This document shows, piece after piece, positions 1,597-60,665 of a stretch of 64,000 nucleotides of DNA. Numbering within the stretch: the stretch's first letter is position 1; every line of letters starts with the position of its first letter. Source of the DNA: a virus; the IMG/VR virus record IMGVR_UViG_3300030106_006724, positions 25,201 through 89,200 of that record; one strand, given 5' to 3'. The notes under the pieces were generated by a model, which was given only the letters and a program-made list of their open reading frames with translations, was not told where the DNA came from and did not search any database. The position numbers and the translations under genes are program-made.

Positions 1597-1762
1597 AAGT
1601 TTAGCAGAATATATAGTTGAAATAGATGGTAAGCAATATGTACCTTACAGTAAAGCTGTAGAGGCGATAATGCAATCCGTAAGTAGAGAAGTAAGAGAAG
1701 CTATGGATGAAGTAGCTTCCGGAATGAAGGATGTAAATAGTTTATTAGAAGATAATGATTAA
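1583..1762 (+). CDS. Small acidic hypothetical protein
   Basis: A 59-residue protein starting MKKNKSLAEYIVEIDGK and ending LLEDND. It overlaps the cupin gene before it and the transglycosylase-like gene after it, in the compact style of the operon. The central part (residues 25-55) is predicted to be helical and amphipathic. No family recognised. Confidence 0.6.
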   Translation: MKKNKSLAEYIVEIDGKQYVPYSKAVEAIMQSVSREVREAMDEVASGMKDVNSLLEDND

Positions 1763-2570
1763 AATAGCGCACGAATCTCCTAAGAGTATTTTTGATGATG
1801 TACAGAAAGTAACTGACTACGATTACGCTCTAGTTCATTTATTAGAAGAAGACGAACAGTATCTTAAGCATTTTCAACAAGCTATTAAAAAAGGAAGAGA
1901 AGTAATTTTAGATAATTCAATATTTGAATTAGAAGAAGCTTTTGAAGCTGAAAAATTTGCATACTGGGTTGAAAAATTAAGACCTGAATGGTATATAGTA
2001 CCTGATGCTTTAGAAAACTCTCTTCTTACCATGGCTCAGATGGAAAAATGGAACTCTCAGTATAAAAACCTTCCCGGTAAAAAAATTGGAGTAGTACAAG
2101 GTCAAACTTATCAATCTATTATAGACTGTTATAAGTATATGGATTATGTAGCTGATGTTGATATGATAGCTATATCATTTGATTACTCTTATTATACCGA
2201 ATCAGTACCTCATGCTAATAAGTACGTTAGTTGGATGTTAGGTAGAATAAAATTATTAGGAGACTTACTTAAGCATGGTATAATAAATAAAAATAAACCT
2301 CATCACCTTTTAGGATGTGGATTACCTCAAGAATTTAGCTTTTATAAACATTCAGATTACGATTGGTTATACTCTTTAGATACTTCTAATCCAGTAGTTC
2401 ACGGTATCAAAGGTATTAAATATGGTGATGATGGTTTGTGGAGCAAAGAATCTCAAAAACTTTATGAATTAATTAATTATGAAGTTGAAGATACTAATAT
2501 AATAATGAATAATATACAAAAATTTAGATGGTTAACTAATGGGAGACACAAAGTGGATATCGTTCTTTAG
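1755..2570 (+). CDS. TGT/DpdA-like guanine transglycosylase
   Basis: A 271-aa protein with the pattern of the tRNA-guanine transglycosylase superfamily, which exchanges guanine for a 7-deazaguanine base. Visible elements are ILDNSIFEL at 51-59 (position of the base-binding Asp, compare DSGGFQ/DNGAF in TGTs), GVVQGQT at 112-118, HLLGCGLPQE at 184-193 and SLDTSNP at 207-213 (candidate nucleophile Asp209). It is much shorter than bacterial tRNA TGTs (about 370 aa) and lacks their C-terminal zinc site, as in phage DpdA proteins that act on DNA. Neighbouring FolE2, QueF and formyltransferase genes support a role in phage DNA modification. It could still act on tRNA; the DpdA subfamily was not determined. 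Confidence 0.7.
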   Translation: MIKIAHESPKSIFDDVQKVTDYDYALVHLLEEDEQYLKHFQQAIKKGREVILDNSIFELEEAFEAEKFAYWVEKLRPEWYIVPDALENSLLTMAQMEKWNSQYKNLPGKKIGVVQGQTYQSIIDCYKYMDYVADVDMIAISFDYSYYTESVPHANKYVSWMLGRIKLLGDLLKHGIINKNKPHHLLGCGLPQEFSFYKHSDYDWLYSLDTSNPVVHGIKGIKYGDDGLWSKESQKLYELINYEVEDTNIIMNNIQKFRWLTNGRHKVDIVL

Positions 2571-5975: not shown

Positions 5976-6233
5976 ATGACAAAAGAAACAGTAGAATCTA
6001 TAAAACTAATCGCAGAAAGAGTCCCCCCTGGAGATAACTGGGAATTAGTAATTGATAAAGAGAACGTAATAGAAGGTTTAGTTCAGACTCTTACTCAATA
6101 TATGCGTAAAACTAAATTTAAAGGTAACTATAGATTAGAGCCTTTACAAGGTAAATTATTCGCTATAGAAGAAGAGCAAGTAAATATTGTTGAACCTGAA
6201 CCTGAAAAGTTTGACCTTTACGGAGAATTTTAG
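5976..6233 (+). CDS. Hypothetical protein
   Basis: An 85-residue protein with a mixed alpha/beta pattern, sequence GNYRLEPLQGKLFAIEEE in the middle and an acidic, proline-containing tail (EPEPEKFDLYGEF). It is the last gene of the first operon, 2 nt after the SGNH gene. No family recognised. Confidence 0.6.
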   Translation: MTKETVESIKLIAERVPPGDNWELVIDKENVIEGLVQTLTQYMRKTKFKGNYRLEPLQGKLFAIEEEQVNIVEPEPEKFDLYGEF

Positions 6234-6239
6234 AAAATT

Positions 6240-6271
6240 AGTTGGAATTCTGAGATATTCTTCTTATATTA
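6240..6271 (+). promoter_or_regulatory. Phage promoter (TTGG-N20-TATATT family)
   Basis: AGTTGGAATTCTGAGATATT followed by CTTCTTATATTA-type end. This copy is identical over all 32 bp to the one at 44725-44756. An 18-nt leader carrying AACGGTTAT separates it from the next start codon. Confidence 0.75.
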
Positions 6272-41561: not shown

Positions 41562-41955
41562 ATTTACAGCTTCATTAAAGCAAACATTTTTTTCGTTACA
41601 TAAAGTTCCTTTTAGAATTAAACAAAAGCAACTTGATCGCACTTCTGTTAACCAAAAATTATTCTTTGATTTCTTACAAAATATGCAAAGAATAGAAGTA
41701 AGAAGAGAAAAACTCTTAGATATAGGTTTAGATGTTACTGGTTATGAAGATATGTTTTTCCACGTTATTGAAAGTTTACTTAATCTTACCTTTAATAAAA
41801 AACAATTAGAATTATTACATACCTATTTATACGAACTAGCTCCTAATCCTGATTGGGATGGAACTATAAAATTAAAAATTAACGAAAAAGAAGAAAGAGT
41901 AGTTAATTTAAAGACACCAAAAGATGTATGGGAAGTACTTCAGAAAATGGGGTAA
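41554..41955 (+). CDS. Hypothetical protein
   Basis: 133 aa, alpha/beta, with FRIKQKQLDRTSVNQKLFFDFL and a conserved-looking LYELAPNPDWDGTIKLKIN. It ends two bases before a promoter element. No family recognised. Confidence 0.6.
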   Translation: MNKFTASLKQTFFSLHKVPFRIKQKQLDRTSVNQKLFFDFLQNMQRIEVRREKLLDIGLDVTGYEDMFFHVIESLLNLTFNKKQLELLHTYLYELAPNPDWDGTIKLKINEKEERVVNLKTPKDVWEVLQKMG

Positions 41956-41957
41956 AT

Positions 41958-41989
41958 AGTTGTTTTTCTGAATAATTTTTCTTATATTT
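41958..41989 (+). promoter_or_regulatory. Phage promoter (AGTTG...TATATTT)
   Basis: AGTTGTTTTTCTGA on the left and TTCTTATATTT on the right, consensus spacing. A leader with AAAACGGTTATAT separates it from the next ATG. Confidence 0.65.
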
Positions 41990-42019
41990 AAGATTGATTA
42001 ATTTAAAACGGTTATATAT

Positions 42020-44565: not shown

Positions 44566-44738
44566 AACCTTTTGAGGAATTATTCGTAGAACCTAGAACT
44601 TGGAAGTTTAAATCATCTAGTTCTGATAAAGAATATACAGTAACTGAAGGTAAATGGCTATACTGTGATTGTTGGGGTTATATAGCTCATAAGCGTTGTA
44701 AGCATATAAAAAAAGTTAAAGAACAGTTGGAATTCTGA
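44559..44738 (+). CDS. SWIM-type zinc finger protein
   Basis: 59 aa with CDCWGYIAHKRCKHI (residues 36-50), the CxCx(n)CxH pattern of a SWIM zinc finger that binds DNA or proteins. The small size suggests an accessory adapter. Its last codons and stop lie inside the next promoter element. Confidence 0.6.
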   Translation: MVKPFEELFVEPRTWKFKSSSSDKEYTVTEGKWLYCDCWGYIAHKRCKHIKKVKEQLEF

Positions 44739-44756
44739 GATATTCTTCTTATATTA
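44725..44756 (+). promoter_or_regulatory. Phage promoter overlapping SWIM gene stop
   Basis: Identical over all 32 bp to the copy at 6240-6271. The upstream gene's final codons GTT-GAA-TTC-TGA (AGTTGGAATTCTGA) are part of it. The leader ends in AATTAAGGTT before the ATG. Confidence 0.75.
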
Positions 44757-48606: not shown

Positions 48607-50925
48607 ATGCAAGGAACATTATTTTCTTCAGATTATGTTATAGATGCTAACGGTAACGAAAGATTAATTGAAATCAATACCGATACTGCATTTACACAAG
48701 AATTTATAGATAGCTATATAAACTTAACTGACTTTATTAACGTACTTTCGTCTAATAATATAGCAGAAGTAGTAGTAATATACAAAGATTTCCATTATAA
48801 TTTTGTTGAGAAGTTAGAAGCTACGTTAAGCTCTCAACTTCCCTCAGTAACTTTAACTAAACAGATTGAAGATATTAATAGTATTTATCCTAACTCAGTT
48901 ACTGATGCTGCTAATAAATTTATATTAAGACTTGCTTATAACGAAAATGCATTACTAGACTCTACTTATGCTAAAAATAAATTAAATCTATTTGAATTAT
49001 TTGTAGATAATAATAATACAACAGAAATAGCTGAATTTTATCATTCAGGTTCTAACGGTATTATAAATACTATTACAGCATCATCTAACGCATCAAATAT
49101 TCCTGATTATATTTCTAAACCATCTGAGGTTCAGCATCAAACATATAACTTATTTAAAGGAGTATCAGGCTCTACTGATCAAGAACAATTAGATAATATT
49201 ATTGAAGATGTAGAAAATATAGAACGAGTAGATAGGATGGTACAAAAATACCATTATAATAGCGGACAAGTAGTTAATAATAGAATTACTTCTATAAGAT
49301 TATTTTCAATAGTATATGATACTGATATAAAATTACTACATTTAGGAATAGCAAAAGCTTCTGCTATGTTAAATATTCCTGGAGTAGTCGAGTATGATAC
49401 CAGAGGAGTAGGTAGATTAAAACTTCAACATTATTATGAGTTTGCTACTAACTATCCTAAGTTTAATCGTAAGCAAGGAGGTTTTTTACCTACAGTACAT
49501 GTTTTAAAACCTGATAATTCAGGAGTTCAGATTAGCTCAGTTCAGTTAAATGATAGTTTAGCTTCATATTATGTTTCTGGCTCTCCTGATACTGATAGCG
49601 GTTCAGTATTAGTTCAATGGAGTATTCCTGGCAATGAAATTCCTTCCGGTTCTTATGTAACCAGCTCAATAGTACATACTGCTATGTCTTCATCAGCAGG
49701 TGATGCAGCTTTAGGAAGATTAGTAACTGATAGCGGTTACGAACTACCAGTAAGTCCTGCCTCGATATTTTTAGTACATGACTCAGCTTCTAATACGGTT
49801 ACTTTCGAAAGTATGCATAATATAAATCCTGGAGATAGTTTATTTAATTTAGATGGTAGTAAGTATTTAATATCTCAATCTCTTCTTGATGTTTATTCTA
49901 ATCAGGATAATCCAATTTATGAATTAAATATGGAATCTACCGATATGTACATATTAAGTTCATCAGGTATATTAGTTCATAATGCTCCTTGTTTTATAGC
50001 AGGAACTATGATTGAATGCGAAGATTCAGTTAAACCTATTGAAATAATTGACCCAGGAGAAAAAGTATTAACTTATAATCACGAAACTAACGAAATAGAA
50101 CCTAAAGAAGTATTAGAAATATGTGTTTGTAAAGATACTCCTGTTATTAAAATTACTATAGGAGAAATAGAAGTTACTTGTACTCATGATCATCCTTTCT
50201 ATATTGAAAATAAAGGGTACGCTTCTTATAATCCAATACAGACATACGAAGATGCTGGAATGGAAGTAGCTAAATTAGAAATAGGAGACAAGGTATTAGA
50301 TGCTAATAAAGTATATACTGAAGTAAAAAGTATAGAAGAGTTAGAGGAACATGAAACTGTATATAATTTAAAGCAGGTTAAAGATAATCATAATTTTTAT
50401 GCTAATAGTTTTTTAGTTCATAATAGAGGAGGTTTTTGTTTTGCAGCTGGTAGTGAAGTAGCGTTAGCTAATGGAGATTATAAAAATATAGAAGATATAG
50501 TAATAGGAGATCAAGTTTTAAGTTGGAATGAAGAAACACATAAAGTGGAAGCTGATACTGTTTACGATATTACTAAACCAGTTTATAGCAATCTAATAGA
50601 CTTAACTTTTGAAAATTCATATACTAATAAAGAATCTAATATTAGCTATATTAGTTGTACTAAAGATCATCCTATATATATTTGGAATGAAGATAATTTT
50701 AAACTAGCATCTTCTGATCCAGATAGAAGTAATGAAATTTATGATATTCCTCACAAAGTTGAAAAATTAGTAATAGGTAATAATGCTATTAATATTCATA
50801 ACGGTCACAGTGAATTAAAAGATTTACAATTTGCTGAAGATAAAGATCCACAAGTTACGTATTGTTTAAGAGTTAAAAATAATAATAACTTTTTTGTTAA
50901 TAATATTTTAGTACACAATAAATAA
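48607..50925 (+). CDS. Large phage protein with tandem C-terminal Hint domains
   Basis: 772 aa. Residues 1-400 contain an alpha/beta module (RLIEINTDTAF is reminiscent of ATP-grasp ends) and then beta-rich repeats with Ser/Gly. From 390 to 772 three Hint-like segments follow: a degenerate one ending VHN (457-459), a complete one with Cys462 (CFIAGTMIECE), THDH (526-529) and VHN (604-606), and a second complete one with Cys611 (CFAAGSEVALA), TKDH (685-688) and terminal VHNK. The residues after VHN are Ala, Arg and Lys, not Ser, Thr or Cys, so ordinary intein splicing is unlikely; self-cleavage like bacterial intein-like or Hedgehog domains is possible. Probably a virion or secreted protein. 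Preceded by no clear promoter. Confidence 0.72.
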   Translation: MQGTLFSSDYVIDANGNERLIEINTDTAFTQEFIDSYINLTDFINVLSSNNIAEVVVIYKDFHYNFVEKLEATLSSQLPSVTLTKQIEDINSIYPNSVTDAANKFILRLAYNENALLDSTYAKNKLNLFELFVDNNNTTEIAEFYHSGSNGIINTITASSNASNIPDYISKPSEVQHQTYNLFKGVSGSTDQEQLDNIIEDVENIERVDRMVQKYHYNSGQVVNNRITSIRLFSIVYDTDIKLLHLGIAKASAMLNIPGVVEYDTRGVGRLKLQHYYEFATNYPKFNRKQGGFLPTVHVLKPDNSGVQISSVQLNDSLASYYVSGSPDTDSGSVLVQWSIPGNEIPSGSYVTSSIVHTAMSSSAGDAALGRLVTDSGYELPVSPASIFLVHDSASNTVTFESMHNINPGDSLFNLDGSKYLISQSLLDVYSNQDNPIYELNMESTDMYILSSSGILVHNAPCFIAGTMIECEDSVKPIEIIDPGEKVLTYNHETNEIEPKEVLEICVCKDTPVIKITIGEIEVTCTHDHPFYIENKGYASYNPIQTYEDAGMEVAKLEIGDKVLDANKVYTEVKSIEELEEHETVYNLKQVKDNHNFYANSFLVHNRGGFCFAAGSEVALANGDYKNIEDIVIGDQVLSWNEETHKVEADTVYDITKPVYSNLIDLTFENSYTNKESNISYISCTKDHPIYIWNEDNFKLASSDPDRSNEIYDIPHKVEKLVIGNNAINIHNGHSELKDLQFAEDKDPQVTYCLRVKNNNNFFVNNILVHNK

Positions 50926-51672: not shown

Positions 51673-52200
51673 ATGGATATAAAAATTATTTACGGATCAG
51701 ATACAGGTAATACAGAAGATGTAACTAATATGATAGTTGATCTTTTAATGGCAGGCGAAGGTAGGTACATTACAAAAATAGTAACTGTTGAAGATTTAGA
51801 GCCTGAAGATTGGACCTCTCACGATTATTACTTTTTAGGTATTCCTACTTGGTACGATGGAGAACTTCAGAGTGATTGGGAAGAATACTTTGAAGAATTT
51901 AAAACTATAGATTTTACTGGTAAAACAGTAGCTATATTTGGATTAGGAGATCAATATACTTATGCTACGTGGTTCTGTGACGGAGTAGGAATATTAGCTA
52001 AAGTTATTATGGAAAATGGAGGTAAAGTTATAGGTTATACTGAAAAAGATGACTCTTATGATTTTGAAACTATTCCTAAAGCTTTATTAGATGAAAATAC
52101 TTTTTATGGGTTATGTATTGACCAGGATAATCAAGAAGAATTAACTGAAAGTAGAGTTAATAACTGGGTTGAAAAAGTTAAAAAAGAGTTGGAATCCTGA
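51673..52200 (+). CDS. Flavodoxin (long chain)
   Basis: 175 aa with IIYGSDTGNTEDV (FMN phosphate loop, residues 4-16), FLGIPTWYDGELQSDWEEYF (long-chain flavodoxin loop) and IFGLGDQYTYATWFCDGVG. The fold acts as a one-electron carrier in the cytoplasm. With the reductase at 52683 it makes a complete shuttle, useful for radical SAM or reductase enzymes. Its stop codon lies inside the next promoter. Confidence 0.9.
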   Translation: MDIKIIYGSDTGNTEDVTNMIVDLLMAGEGRYITKIVTVEDLEPEDWTSHDYYFLGIPTWYDGELQSDWEEYFEEFKTIDFTGKTVAIFGLGDQYTYATWFCDGVGILAKVIMENGGKVIGYTEKDDSYDFETIPKALLDENTFYGLCIDQDNQEELTESRVNNWVEKVKKELES

Positions 52201-52218
52201 TATATTTTTCTTATATTT
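52187..52218 (+). promoter_or_regulatory. Phage promoter overlapping flavodoxin stop
   Basis: AGTTGGAATCCTGATATATT and TTTCTTATATTT at the right end, consensus spacing. The flavodoxin C-terminus (ELES stop) is encoded inside the element. A second, similar coding-end overlap occurs at 44725. Confidence 0.7.
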
Positions 52219-52236
52219 ATAGATAAAGGAAGTAAT

Positions 52237-54756: not shown

Positions 54757-55260
54757 ATGAAATATAAAAATTCTACTAAAATTATATCTGGTTCAGATAG
54801 TAAAAAAGCTAAAAACGAAAAAAAAGACTGTGTAGTAAAAGCTATTGCTTCTTCTACTAGTGTGGATTATAATACTGCTCATAGTTGGGTTAAAGAAAAC
54901 TTTGAGAGAGAAGATAAAAAAGGAACTAGTAATTGGATGATTTCTAAAAGATTTAAAAATGAAAAAATGGAAATCGGAGGTAAAGAGTTCAAAGTTAGAA
55001 AACTAAAAAGCTGGGAAACTACAAATAGTTATAAGCTTTATGGTGAGTTAATAAATCGTCAGAAAACTGTTAAGTCTTTTAGAAAAGATAAACCTAACGG
55101 TACTTATATGGTATTAGTTAGTAAGCATGCTTTTACTATTAAAGAAGGTACTTTGATAGATAATGTAGGAGAAGAATGGAGACCTACTAGAAAAGTAATC
55201 GGAGCTTATCAGTTTGTTCCAGTTAGTAAAGAAGTTCAACTTTCCCTAGATTTTTCTTAG
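54757..55260 (+). CDS. Possible papain-like cysteine peptidase-type protein
   Basis: 167 aa. A KDCVVKAIASSTSVDYNTAH block with Cys near residue 25 and a later VLVSKHAFTIKEGTLIDN with His near 125 and Asn/Asp give the layout of a papain-like Cys-His-Asn peptidase. The assignment rests on spacing only. Starts from its own promoter. Confidence 0.4.
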   Translation: MKYKNSTKIISGSDSKKAKNEKKDCVVKAIASSTSVDYNTAHSWVKENFEREDKKGTSNWMISKRFKNEKMEIGGKEFKVRKLKSWETTNSYKLYGELINRQKTVKSFRKDKPNGTYMVLVSKHAFTIKEGTLIDNVGEEWRPTRKVIGAYQFVPVSKEVQLSLDFS

Positions 55261-55265
55261 GGAAT

Positions 55266-55297
55266 AGTTGGAAGTCTGAGAAAAAGTTCTTATATTT
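55266..55297 (+). promoter_or_regulatory. Phage promoter (AGTTGG...TATATTT)
   Basis: AGTTGGAAGTCTGAG on the left and GTTCTTATATTT on the right, consensus spacing. Leader of about 29 nt ends in AAAAAGGTT before the ATG. Confidence 0.7.
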
Positions 55298-55326
55298 AAG
55301 TATATAAATCAATAATAAAAAAGGTT

Positions 55327-56241
55327 ATGTCAAATCAATTAATTTTCGAAACTCTTAAAGCTAAAGAGGATAAACTGCAAGCTAAATTAGATAAATTACA
55401 AGAAAAACATAGAGAAGTTAGAGATGCTAAAACTAAAGCTCTTAACGATACTTTAAGATCTTATTTTGAACCAACTATTGCAGGTGATTCAGCTACTAAC
55501 TTAGTAGATGTTAAGTATGAAACTTCTTATGGTTCTTCTATGGAGATTACTGCTCAAGGTAATTCATATGAAAAAGACGTATGGAATCAAGAAAAAGAAG
55601 AATATGAAGTTAAAACTTTATTTAGAAGAAAAGAAGTATGTACTGTAAAAGTAAAAGAGTATAGTAGATATGATAATGACGAAGATACTGGAGATCATTT
55701 TACTGATTTAGGTATTAGTACTTATTCTTCTTCTGATAATTACTCAGAGTTTACTTTAGATAGAATGTTATTTACTGGTCAAGTTGCTTTAACTATTAAA
55801 GACTTTAAAGATGATATCTTAGCTGATATGAATAAAGTTTATGAGCAGCATACTAAATTAACTGATAAGTCATTGGATAAAGTAAATGTGGTTAGGGATC
55901 AGATCCAAGAAATCGAAGATCAGAGATCTAAATTTAAGCATGATATCTTCATGGAAGATCTTAAGAATGGTATCGAACTTTTAGATGATAAAACTGCTTC
56001 GATCCAGGTAAGATACGATTGGCATGTTGGTAGCATTATAGCTGCTAAGATTACTAGAACTTCTTACTCAGGTAAGTCTGTTGACTTAGAAGTTAAGACT
56101 AAAGGAAGATCTTGGAATAGTGAAACTGAAAAGTATGAAGATCAGATCTTTACTAAGACTTTAGATAAAGTAAGAGTTTCTAAACTTCAGGATTCTTTTT
56201 TAAACGGTTATAGTAATTTAACTTGGAAAAAAGTATCGTAA
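55327..56241 (+). CDS. Coiled-coil protein with two similar halves
   Basis: 304 aa. An N-terminal helix with heptads (LKAKEDKLQAKLDKLQEKHREV) and two related beta-rich parts, each with W-N-x-E-x-E-x-Y-E (VWNQEKEEYEVKTLFRRKE and SWNSETEKYEDQIFTK), about 140 residues apart, separated by a second coiled coil (170-205). This suggests an internal duplication. No family recognised. Confidence 0.65.
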   Translation: MSNQLIFETLKAKEDKLQAKLDKLQEKHREVRDAKTKALNDTLRSYFEPTIAGDSATNLVDVKYETSYGSSMEITAQGNSYEKDVWNQEKEEYEVKTLFRRKEVCTVKVKEYSRYDNDEDTGDHFTDLGISTYSSSDNYSEFTLDRMLFTGQVALTIKDFKDDILADMNKVYEQHTKLTDKSLDKVNVVRDQIQEIEDQRSKFKHDIFMEDLKNGIELLDDKTASIQVRYDWHVGSIIAAKITRTSYSGKSVDLEVKTKGRSWNSETEKYEDQIFTKTLDKVRVSKLQDSFLNGYSNLTWKKVS

Positions 56242-57543: not shown

Positions 57544-57687
57544 TACCCAGTAGAGCAGTAGGTAGCTCGCTTTGGCTTAACCTGGCGCGGAGAAGTAACT
57601 TGTACGTAAAAGTGAAACTCGTAATACAATCGATCGTGAAAAGCAAAAGGGTCAAAGAGGTCGCAGGTTCGAGTCCTGCCTGGGCAG
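57544..57687 (+). tRNA. tRNA with an intron-like insertion in the anticodon loop
   Basis: Every arm except the anticodon loop is canonical: acceptor TACCCAG/CTGGGCA (6 of 7 pairs; A57545 against C57685), T8 A9, D arm GAGC-AGTAGGTA-GCTC, G26, anticodon stem CTTTG/CAAAG (57570-57574 with 57653-57657), a 5-nt variable loop AGGTC and T arm GCAGG-TTCGAGT-CCTGC. Between the stem halves lie 78 nt instead of 7, so about 71 nt are extra. The insert can extend the stem in alternative ways (GCTT/AAGC or ACCT/GGGT). The amino acid identity is uncertain: a stem shift (TTTGG/TCAAA) would give Leu-like anticodons, while the simplest stem gives C33. CCA is not fully encoded. Confidence 0.7.
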
Positions 57688-57705
57688 CAAAATAAACTTT
57701 AAACT

Positions 57706-57737
57706 AGTTGGAGAATAGAAATATTTTTCTTATATTA
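57706..57737 (+). promoter_or_regulatory. Phage promoter (AGTTGG...TATATTA)
   Basis: AGTTGGAGAATAGAA on the left and TTTCTTATATTA on the right, consensus spacing. A leader with AAACGGTTAT and a second AAGGTT precede the ATG. Confidence 0.7.
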
Positions 57738-60601: not shown

Positions 60602-60611
60602 AAGGGGAGAT

Positions 60612-60643
60612 AGTTGGAATTCTGCTAAATTCTTCTTATATTA
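60612..60643 (+). promoter_or_regulatory. Phage promoter (AGTTGG...TATATTA)
   Basis: AGTTGGAATTCTGCTAAATT then TTCTTATATTA; the left part is nearly identical to the 6240 and 44725 copies. Leader with AAAACGGTTAT before the ATG. Confidence 0.75.
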
Positions 60644-60665
60644 TGGTATATTTAAAAACGGTTAT

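What the first reader, a model, noticed from the sequence alone, without database searches (positions are those of the whole stretch)
57544..57687. A tRNA whose anticodon loop is interrupted by about 71 nt
All other arms are canonical, including T8/A9, GG in the D loop, a 5-nt variable loop and a TTCGAGT T loop, so this looks like a functional tRNA rather than a decayed one. The anticodon stem CTTTG/CAAAG is split by 78 nt instead of 7. This is far too short for a group I intron, and no group I core is visible. Alternative pairings (GCTT/AAGC, or ACCT/GGGT flanked by unpaired GCTTA and AAAA) could form a bulge-helix-bulge-like site. No simple excision in this stem register gives U33, so identity and processing are unclear. 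A removable insert would imply an unusual tRNA-splicing route in a phage.
Basis: partly seen in the sequence, partly recalled or inferred. Interest (0 to 1): 0.8.

Follow-up and report, generated by a model that had tools for sequence, protein, structure and literature searches.

The report
Phage tRNA-like RNA with conserved insert
A family of phages related to a Flavobacterium virus carries one gene for a tRNA-shaped RNA whose decoding loop is replaced by a strongly conserved folded insert; it is not in the RNA-family library searched here and probably serves as a scaffolded working RNA rather than a tRNA that reads codons.

Summary
Window 57544-57690 (+) has intact tRNA acceptor, D, anticodon and T stems, with 78 nt between the anticodon-stem strands instead of 7. 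It is not a lone disruption. The same element occurs once in each of 33 other IMG/VR phage contigs, with short (~45 nt) or long (~71 nt) inserts, and a more divergent copy was found in one more. Twenty-seven aligned sequences support one fold by compensatory changes (22 of 35 pairs change on both sides; 0/500 shuffles). The anticodon stem continues through 32:38 and 33:37, then a UUAA bulge, a 3-bp helix in which CYN pairs with the nominal anticodon N'RG, and an apical domain with an invariant core, CGAUCGUGAAAAGC. Rfam does not list it, and a pattern scan of about 85,000 bacterial and archaeal genomes found only chance matches. The phages are Immutovirus-like. The body mostly resembles phage initiator tRNA, but the nominal anticodon drifts freely, position 33 is C, and the top of the acceptor is frayed. 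No excision register restores a normal anticodon loop, and no RtcB, PF09414 ligase or EndA-type splicing protein was found in the records. Best reading: a non-decoding, tRNA-scaffolded RNA acting through its insert. A tiny new tRNA intron remains possible.

The parts
57544..57690 (+). whole tRNA-like RNA (acceptor 5' end to trailing CAA)
   Evidence: CM R1 hit 169 bits
57544..57550 (+). acceptor stem 5' strand UACCCAG (top two pairs frayed in the family)
   Evidence: helix 1: col 2:146 paired in only 6 of 26 sequences
57553..57568 (+). D arm GAGC-AGUAGGUA-GCUC (A11:U24, as in initiator tRNAs)
   Evidence: covarying GAGC/GCUC, GUUC/GAAC, CCUC/GAGG; all 43 uninterrupted phage genes with this exact arm are tRNA-fMet(CAU)
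57570..57576 (+). extended anticodon stem, 5' strand CUUUGGC (27-33)
   Evidence: 7 bp, 100% of cells paired, 5 pairs with double changes
57577..57580 (+). UUAA bulge (UAAA, AUAA or UUUAUAA in relatives)
57581..57583 (+). CCU, 5' strand of inner helix P2, complementary to nominal anticodon
   Evidence: third pair seen as CG, UA, GC and AU, 27/27 paired
57584..57588 (+). GGCGC; last two bases pair with GC of the core, first three form a 3x3 internal loop
57589..57620 (+). peripheral hairpin present only in long-insert members
   Evidence: helices 6 and 7; absent in L026, L032, L058, L129, L131, L133, L142, L151
57621..57647 (+). apical core GUAAUACAAUC-GAUCGUGAAAAGC-AAA; CGAUCGUGAAAAGC is invariant
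   Evidence: invariant columns (scan pattern GATCGTGAAAAGC, so invariance of those bases is partly by selection; L291, found by CM, differs)
57648..57652 (+). AGG (positions 34-36 counted from the 3' stem), G37, U38
   Evidence: 3' strand of P2 plus 33:37 and 32:38 pairs
57653..57657 (+). anticodon stem 3' strand CAAAG
57658..57679 (+). variable loop AGGUC and T arm
57680..57690 (+). acceptor 3' strand CUGGGCA, G73, then CAA (no encoded CCA)
57706..57736 (+). phage promoter-like sequence (AGTTGG ... TTCTTATATT) just downstream, for the next genes
   Evidence: same motif before several window genes; similar motif directly before the RNA in L026, L131, L134, L142, L147

Best explanation
It is a stand-alone structured RNA of Immutovirus-like phages that uses a tRNA body, mostly initiator-tRNA-like, as a folding, processing and stability scaffold. 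The anticodon loop is replaced by a conserved extension: the anticodon stem continues through 32:38 and 33:37, then a UUAA bulge, a 3-bp helix that ties up the former anticodon, and an apical domain with an invariant core. The RNA most likely is not spliced and does not decode. The conserved apical domain would be the working part, binding a host or phage protein or RNA, for example as a decoy or inhibitor of a tRNA-targeting defence or of the translation machinery. Shown: the fold, its conservation, one copy per record, and promoter-like sequences directly upstream in some relatives. Inferred: no excision, a trans-acting role. Not known: the binding partner.
For: Compensatory changes throughout stem and insert (RNAalifold; 96% of cells paired against 31-53% when slid, 122 double-change cells against 34 in shuffles, 0/500). 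Exactly one full copy per record in all 33 element-bearing records searched, in changing genome positions: after queC in about 18 loci, elsewhere in others. Phage promoter motif directly upstream in L026, L131, L134, L142, L147. Nominal anticodon drifts between near-identical sisters while always remaining paired to an internal complement. The 1:72 pair forms in 6 of 26 members and 2:71 in 19 of 26, against 140/143 and 143/143 in ordinary non-Met tRNAs of the loci examined. The insert core is more constant than the tRNA body. Most element-bearing records have no other tRNA over the Rfam cut-off. No RtcB, PF09414 ligase or EndA in the records.
Against: No expression or processing data. The D and T arms and discriminator region are kept well enough that a spliced, charged tRNA cannot be ruled out. 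The codon-like CYN paired to 34-36 also resembles intron-anticodon pairing of eukaryotic pre-tRNAs. The host could supply RtcB. All partner proposals are inference.
Confidence: 0.57

Rival explanations
1. A tRNA gene with a new kind of very small intron (45-75 nt), removed by self-splicing or by cleavage plus host ligation; the intron's CYN pairs with the anticodon before removal, as in eukaryotic and archaeal pre-tRNAs.
For: tRNA arms intact; ARAGORN with introns calls a tRNA in every complete member; intron-anticodon-like pairing covaries; the element sits next to canonical tRNA-Gln/Ala in L095, L115, L135, L150 and L052; insert size is variable but its ends are fixed.
Against: No register gives U33; the anticodon is not conserved in the 3' register; strict BHB geometry not met; no EndA, RtcB or PF09414 ligase found in the records; frayed acceptor.
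Confidence: 0.2
2. The extension is a small ribozyme that cuts or processes the transcript in cis, the invariant core being the catalytic centre.
For: Invariant unpaired core with bulge and internal loops; constant architecture around it.
Against: No Rfam ribozyme match at relaxed thresholds for the three members tested; L291 keeps stem, bulge and P2 but has a different apical domain.
Confidence: 0.08
3. After excision just before the 3' stem the loop would be N-C-UUA-A-U/C: an ochre (UAA) suppressor tRNA.
For: UUA with A37 in 25 of 28 members in that register.
Against: C33 in 27 of 28; two members give UAA and one AUA; leaves the P2 covariation unexplained; UAA is a common stop in these genes (sequence reading).
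Confidence: 0.05
4. A dead or disrupted tRNA (pseudogene or assembly error).
For: The window copy is missed by default ARAGORN and by Rfam at gathering score.
Against: 34 records, compensatory changes, invariant core.
Confidence: 0.02

Closest known systems
Phage initiator tRNA-fMet(CAU)
   Same: D arm GAGC-AGUAGGUA-GCUC with A11:U24, 1:72 mismatch, AGGUC variable loop; all 43 uninterrupted genes with this D arm are fMet; C33 occurs in some of them
   Different: No CAU anticodon, no run of three G:C pairs at 29-31:39-41, 45-75 nt extension; six alignment rows have elongator-type 11:24 pairs
Intron-containing tRNAs (archaeal/eukaryotic BHB introns; bacterial group I introns in anticodon loops)
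   Same: Insertion in the anticodon loop; intron-like segment pairs with positions 34-36
   Different: 3-bp central helix, 4-6-nt 5' bulge, no 3-nt 3' bulge, no EndA family found in the records; no group I match in Rfam
YrlA / bacterial Y RNAs and other tRNA-like noncoding RNAs
   Same: tRNA-like module carrying a separate functional RNA part
   Different: Rfam YrlA only at chance level; YrlA has its T arm before its D arm; here the order is canonical
Engineered tRNA scaffolds (foreign RNA placed in the anticodon stem; e.g. PMC3753655)
   Same: tRNA fold used to carry a foreign hairpin in place of the anticodon loop (design recalled from general knowledge; the paper was listed, not read)
   Different: Natural, conserved, and with a constant core
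Phage tRNAs that evade anticodon nucleases (PMC10264068)
   Same: Phage tRNA with altered anticodon loop; VapC of some bacteria targets initiator tRNA
   Different: That work describes point changes in decoding tRNAs, not a conserved extension
tmRNA
   Same: tRNA-like domain joined to another RNA through the anticodon-stem position
   Different: Full D stem kept; ~45-75 nt insert; no Rfam tmRNA match

Membership tests
tRNA (RF00005) | cloverleaf recognised by the tRNA covariance model at gathering score | tested here: met
   Short-insert members 33.7-41.8 bits against 29; the window's long-insert copy scores below threshold
decoding tRNA | stable anticodon with U33 in a 7-nt loop after any processing | tested here: not met
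   no excision register gives U33 in more than 3 of 28
decoding tRNA | paired 7-bp acceptor | tested here: not met
   1:72 paired in 6/26 and 2:71 in 19/26, against 140/143 and 143/143 in ordinary tRNAs
initiator tRNA | 1:72 mismatch and A11:U24 | tested here: inconclusive
   1:72 unpaired in 20/26; A11:U24 in 21/27
initiator tRNA | three G:C pairs at 29-31:39-41 | tested here: not met
   CUUUG/CAAAG and variants
BHB tRNA intron | 4-bp helix flanked by two 3-nt bulges | tested here: not met
   3 bp, UUAA bulge, 3x3 loop; definition in part from PMC4090602, bulge length from general knowledge
BHB tRNA intron | splicing endonuclease (PF01974) encoded by the phage | tested here: not met
   0 of 25 records, archaeal controls positive; most records are fragments
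BHB tRNA intron | precise excision and ligation in vivo | not testable with these tools
   needs RNA
group I / group II intron or known small ribozyme | Rfam family match | tested here: not met
YrlA (RF02553) | gathering score 69 | tested here: not met
   14.5 and 16.7 bits

The most novel reading that the evidence does not exclude
A 45-75 nt RNA element in phage tRNA-like genes is a new class of miniature intron or ribozyme that excises itself, or is excised, from an initiator-like tRNA in bacteria, using internal pairing with the anticodon to define the site.
Probability: 0.17. Interest if true: 0.93.

Novelty: new variant of a known kind. Interest (0 to 1): 0.74.

Why it matters
It is a conserved, compensatory-change-supported RNA family not found in Rfam, apparently confined to one phage group, that repurposes a tRNA fold by swapping the anticodon loop for a conserved domain. 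If unspliced, it is a natural counterpart of the engineered tRNA scaffold and a candidate phage counter-defence or translation-control RNA. If spliced, it would be an RNA-processing route unknown in bacteria. Either reading can be tested with one RNA sequencing experiment. It also shows that default tRNA finders miss such RNAs.

Tried and rejected
Rfam at gathering and relaxed thresholds on three members: no known RNA besides tRNA. INPHARED blastn with four queries: no homologue of the insert; the many short T-arm hits are ordinary tRNAs and tmRNAs. Genome contigs (GTDB) pattern scan: 11 hits, all chance sequence without tRNA context. Immuto phage (complete, cultured): no element. Codon-mimic reading frame (CYN RRY GCR ... 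stop), tmRNA-like: not pursued, frame not conserved in the long forms. Homodimer through palindromic CGAUCG: energetically possible (-12.6 and -8.9 kcal/mol), but no evidence. A scan for divergent cores was mis-specified and says nothing; L168 is chance. The single-sequence fold of the window is no better than shuffles (z = 0.67), so the case rests on comparison, not energy. The PF09511 search had no positive control, so it does not show absence. Literature searches found no description of this RNA; the library is open-access only.

Full report
OBSERVATION. Window 57544-57690 (+) reads as a tRNA cloverleaf with intact D, anticodon and T stems and a 5-nt variable loop. The anticodon-stem strands CTTTG (57570-57574) and CAAAG (57653-57657) are 78 nt apart. 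Default ARAGORN finds no tRNA in the window. Rfam gives only a weak T-arm hit for the window copy, but short-insert homologues pass the tRNA gathering score: 33.7-41.8 bits against 29.

IT IS A FAMILY. Contigs related to the neighbouring gene 55327-56241 include three with the element in the same place (L005, L006, L008). The others lack it at that place, but one (L002) carries it elsewhere (L146, same contig). A pattern scan of IMG/VR for GATCGTGAAAAGC followed by a T loop gave 33 contigs. A covariance model built from 27 distinct sequences (R1) finds one full copy in each of 33 element-bearing records searched, the window's record included (one of them, G023, is cut by the contig end), and none in cultured Flavobacterium phage immuto. 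The GTDB scan gave only chance hits. Among 48 further records with a related DNA polymerase, R1 found one divergent member (L291, 68 bits).

STRUCTURE. RNAalifold, given only the alignment, returns the tRNA arms plus a continued anticodon stem (32:38, 33:37), then an inner helix CYN:N'RG and a GC:GC pair. With the peripheral hairpin of the long form, 35 pairs were counted: 96% of cells paired, 22 pairs with double changes, 122 double-change cells against 34 in shuffles, covariation 0.406 against 0.157, 0/500 shuffles reaching it; sliding partners by 1-3 columns drops pairing to 31-53%. The N:N' pair occurs as CG, UA, GC and AU in 27/27 sequences; D, T and acceptor stems covary too. Between helices lie a UUAA bulge, a 3x3 loop (RRY/AAA) and an apical domain with CGAUCGUGAAAAGC. 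The scan pattern forced part of this constancy, and L291, which was found by the model, has a different apical domain while keeping stem, bulge (AUAA) and P2 (CUU/AAG). Short and long forms differ by a peripheral hairpin between RGCGC and RUAAUA. The single-sequence fold is unremarkable, so the case rests on comparison.

WHAT THE tRNA BODY IS. An IMG/VR scan for the uninterrupted D arm with a T loop at tRNA distance gave 43 loci, and all of them are initiator tRNA-fMet(CAU). The element shares A11:U24 (21 of 27), the 1:72 mismatch (20 of 26) and the AGGUC variable loop. Six rows have elongator-type 11:24 pairs, and none has the three G:C anticodon-stem pairs of initiators. In ordinary non-Met tRNAs of the loci examined, 1:72 pairs in 140/143 and 2:71 in 143/143; here 6/26 and 19/26. 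Ranking by similarity is biased by how the fMet set was fetched; the 43/43 result is not biased with respect to anticodon.

CONTEXT. The window's DNA polymerase is 69% identical to that of Flavobacterium phage immuto, so the host is probably a flavobacterium (inference). In about 18 loci the element lies just after queC in a region with queD, queE, folE and DpdA-like genes; in others it lies elsewhere, so its position changes. The phage promoter motif (TTGG ~20 nt TTCNTATATT) stands directly before it in L026, L131, L134, L142 and L147. Most of the 18 element-bearing records searched have no other tRNA over the Rfam cut-off and the rest have one or two, while several related records without the element have 10-22. 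Fragmentation and ancestry confound this contrast.

MECHANISM. I listed all excision registers that leave a 7-nt loop. None gives U33 in more than 3 of 28. The 3' register gives six anticodons; the 5' register gives mostly UUA. The records searched encode no RtcB, no PF09414 ligase and no EndA-type endonuclease; the PF09511 search lacked a working control. Most records are fragments, so absence is not proven. The simplest reading is that the anticodon has been released from decoding and serves as one strand of a helix, and that the tRNA body is a scaffold for the apical domain. Shown: fold, conservation, one copy per record, promoter-like sequence in some relatives. Inferred: unspliced, trans-acting. 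Unknown: partner. A decoy or inhibitor of a tRNA-targeting defence is a reasonable special case; phage tRNA changes that evade anticodon nucleases, and VapC enzymes that cut initiator tRNA, are discussed in PMC10264068.

KNOWN KINDS. It meets the tRNA model but fails tests for a decoding tRNA, a strict BHB intron, group I/II introns, known small ribozymes and YrlA (membership table). It works most like the engineered tRNA scaffold (PMC3753655, listed), as a natural and conserved version.

NOVELTY. No match in Rfam 15, none in INPHARED at blastn sensitivity, none in the papers searched (open-access only). I call it a new variant of the tRNA-like RNA kind, because tRNA-like noncoding RNAs exist but none with this architecture was found here.

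Noticed in passing
L321 722-1908 (G068:41321-42507); also L323 354-463 and 516-626, L324 428-536: Related phages carry a second class of odd tRNA-like genes, 74-165 nt, several sharing one acceptor stem AGTCAGG/CCTGACT and T arm, with completely different centres; L321 has seven in 1.2 kb. They may be another case of tRNA ends carrying variable inserts.
   Followed up: partly
L213 20246-20331 (immuto phage): Annotated 'tRNA-Cys' of 86 nt near queC, not called by ARAGORN, has a weak D arm and an 11-nt anticodon loop; possibly another non-decoding tRNA-like RNA.
   Followed up: no
window 6231-6270, 41949-41990, 44716-44756, 52178-52220, 55257-55300, 57706-57736, 60603-60645: Repeated phage promoter-like motif AGTTGG...TTCTTATATT before genes.
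   Followed up: partly
window 48607-50925: 772-aa protein with a strong intein-type Hint domain (Pfam Intein_splicing) at residues ~468-606; a possible intein-containing phage protein.
   Followed up: no
window 1755-2570; L032 1378-2166: DpdA-like protein in the window (resembles F12-type proteins of relatives; no Pfam hit) and QueC in relatives: 7-deazaguanine DNA modification genes in this phage group.
   Followed up: partly
3' ends of tRNAs in these phages: Discriminator is commonly followed by CAA or CTA rather than CCA, in ordinary tRNAs and in the element.
   Followed up: no
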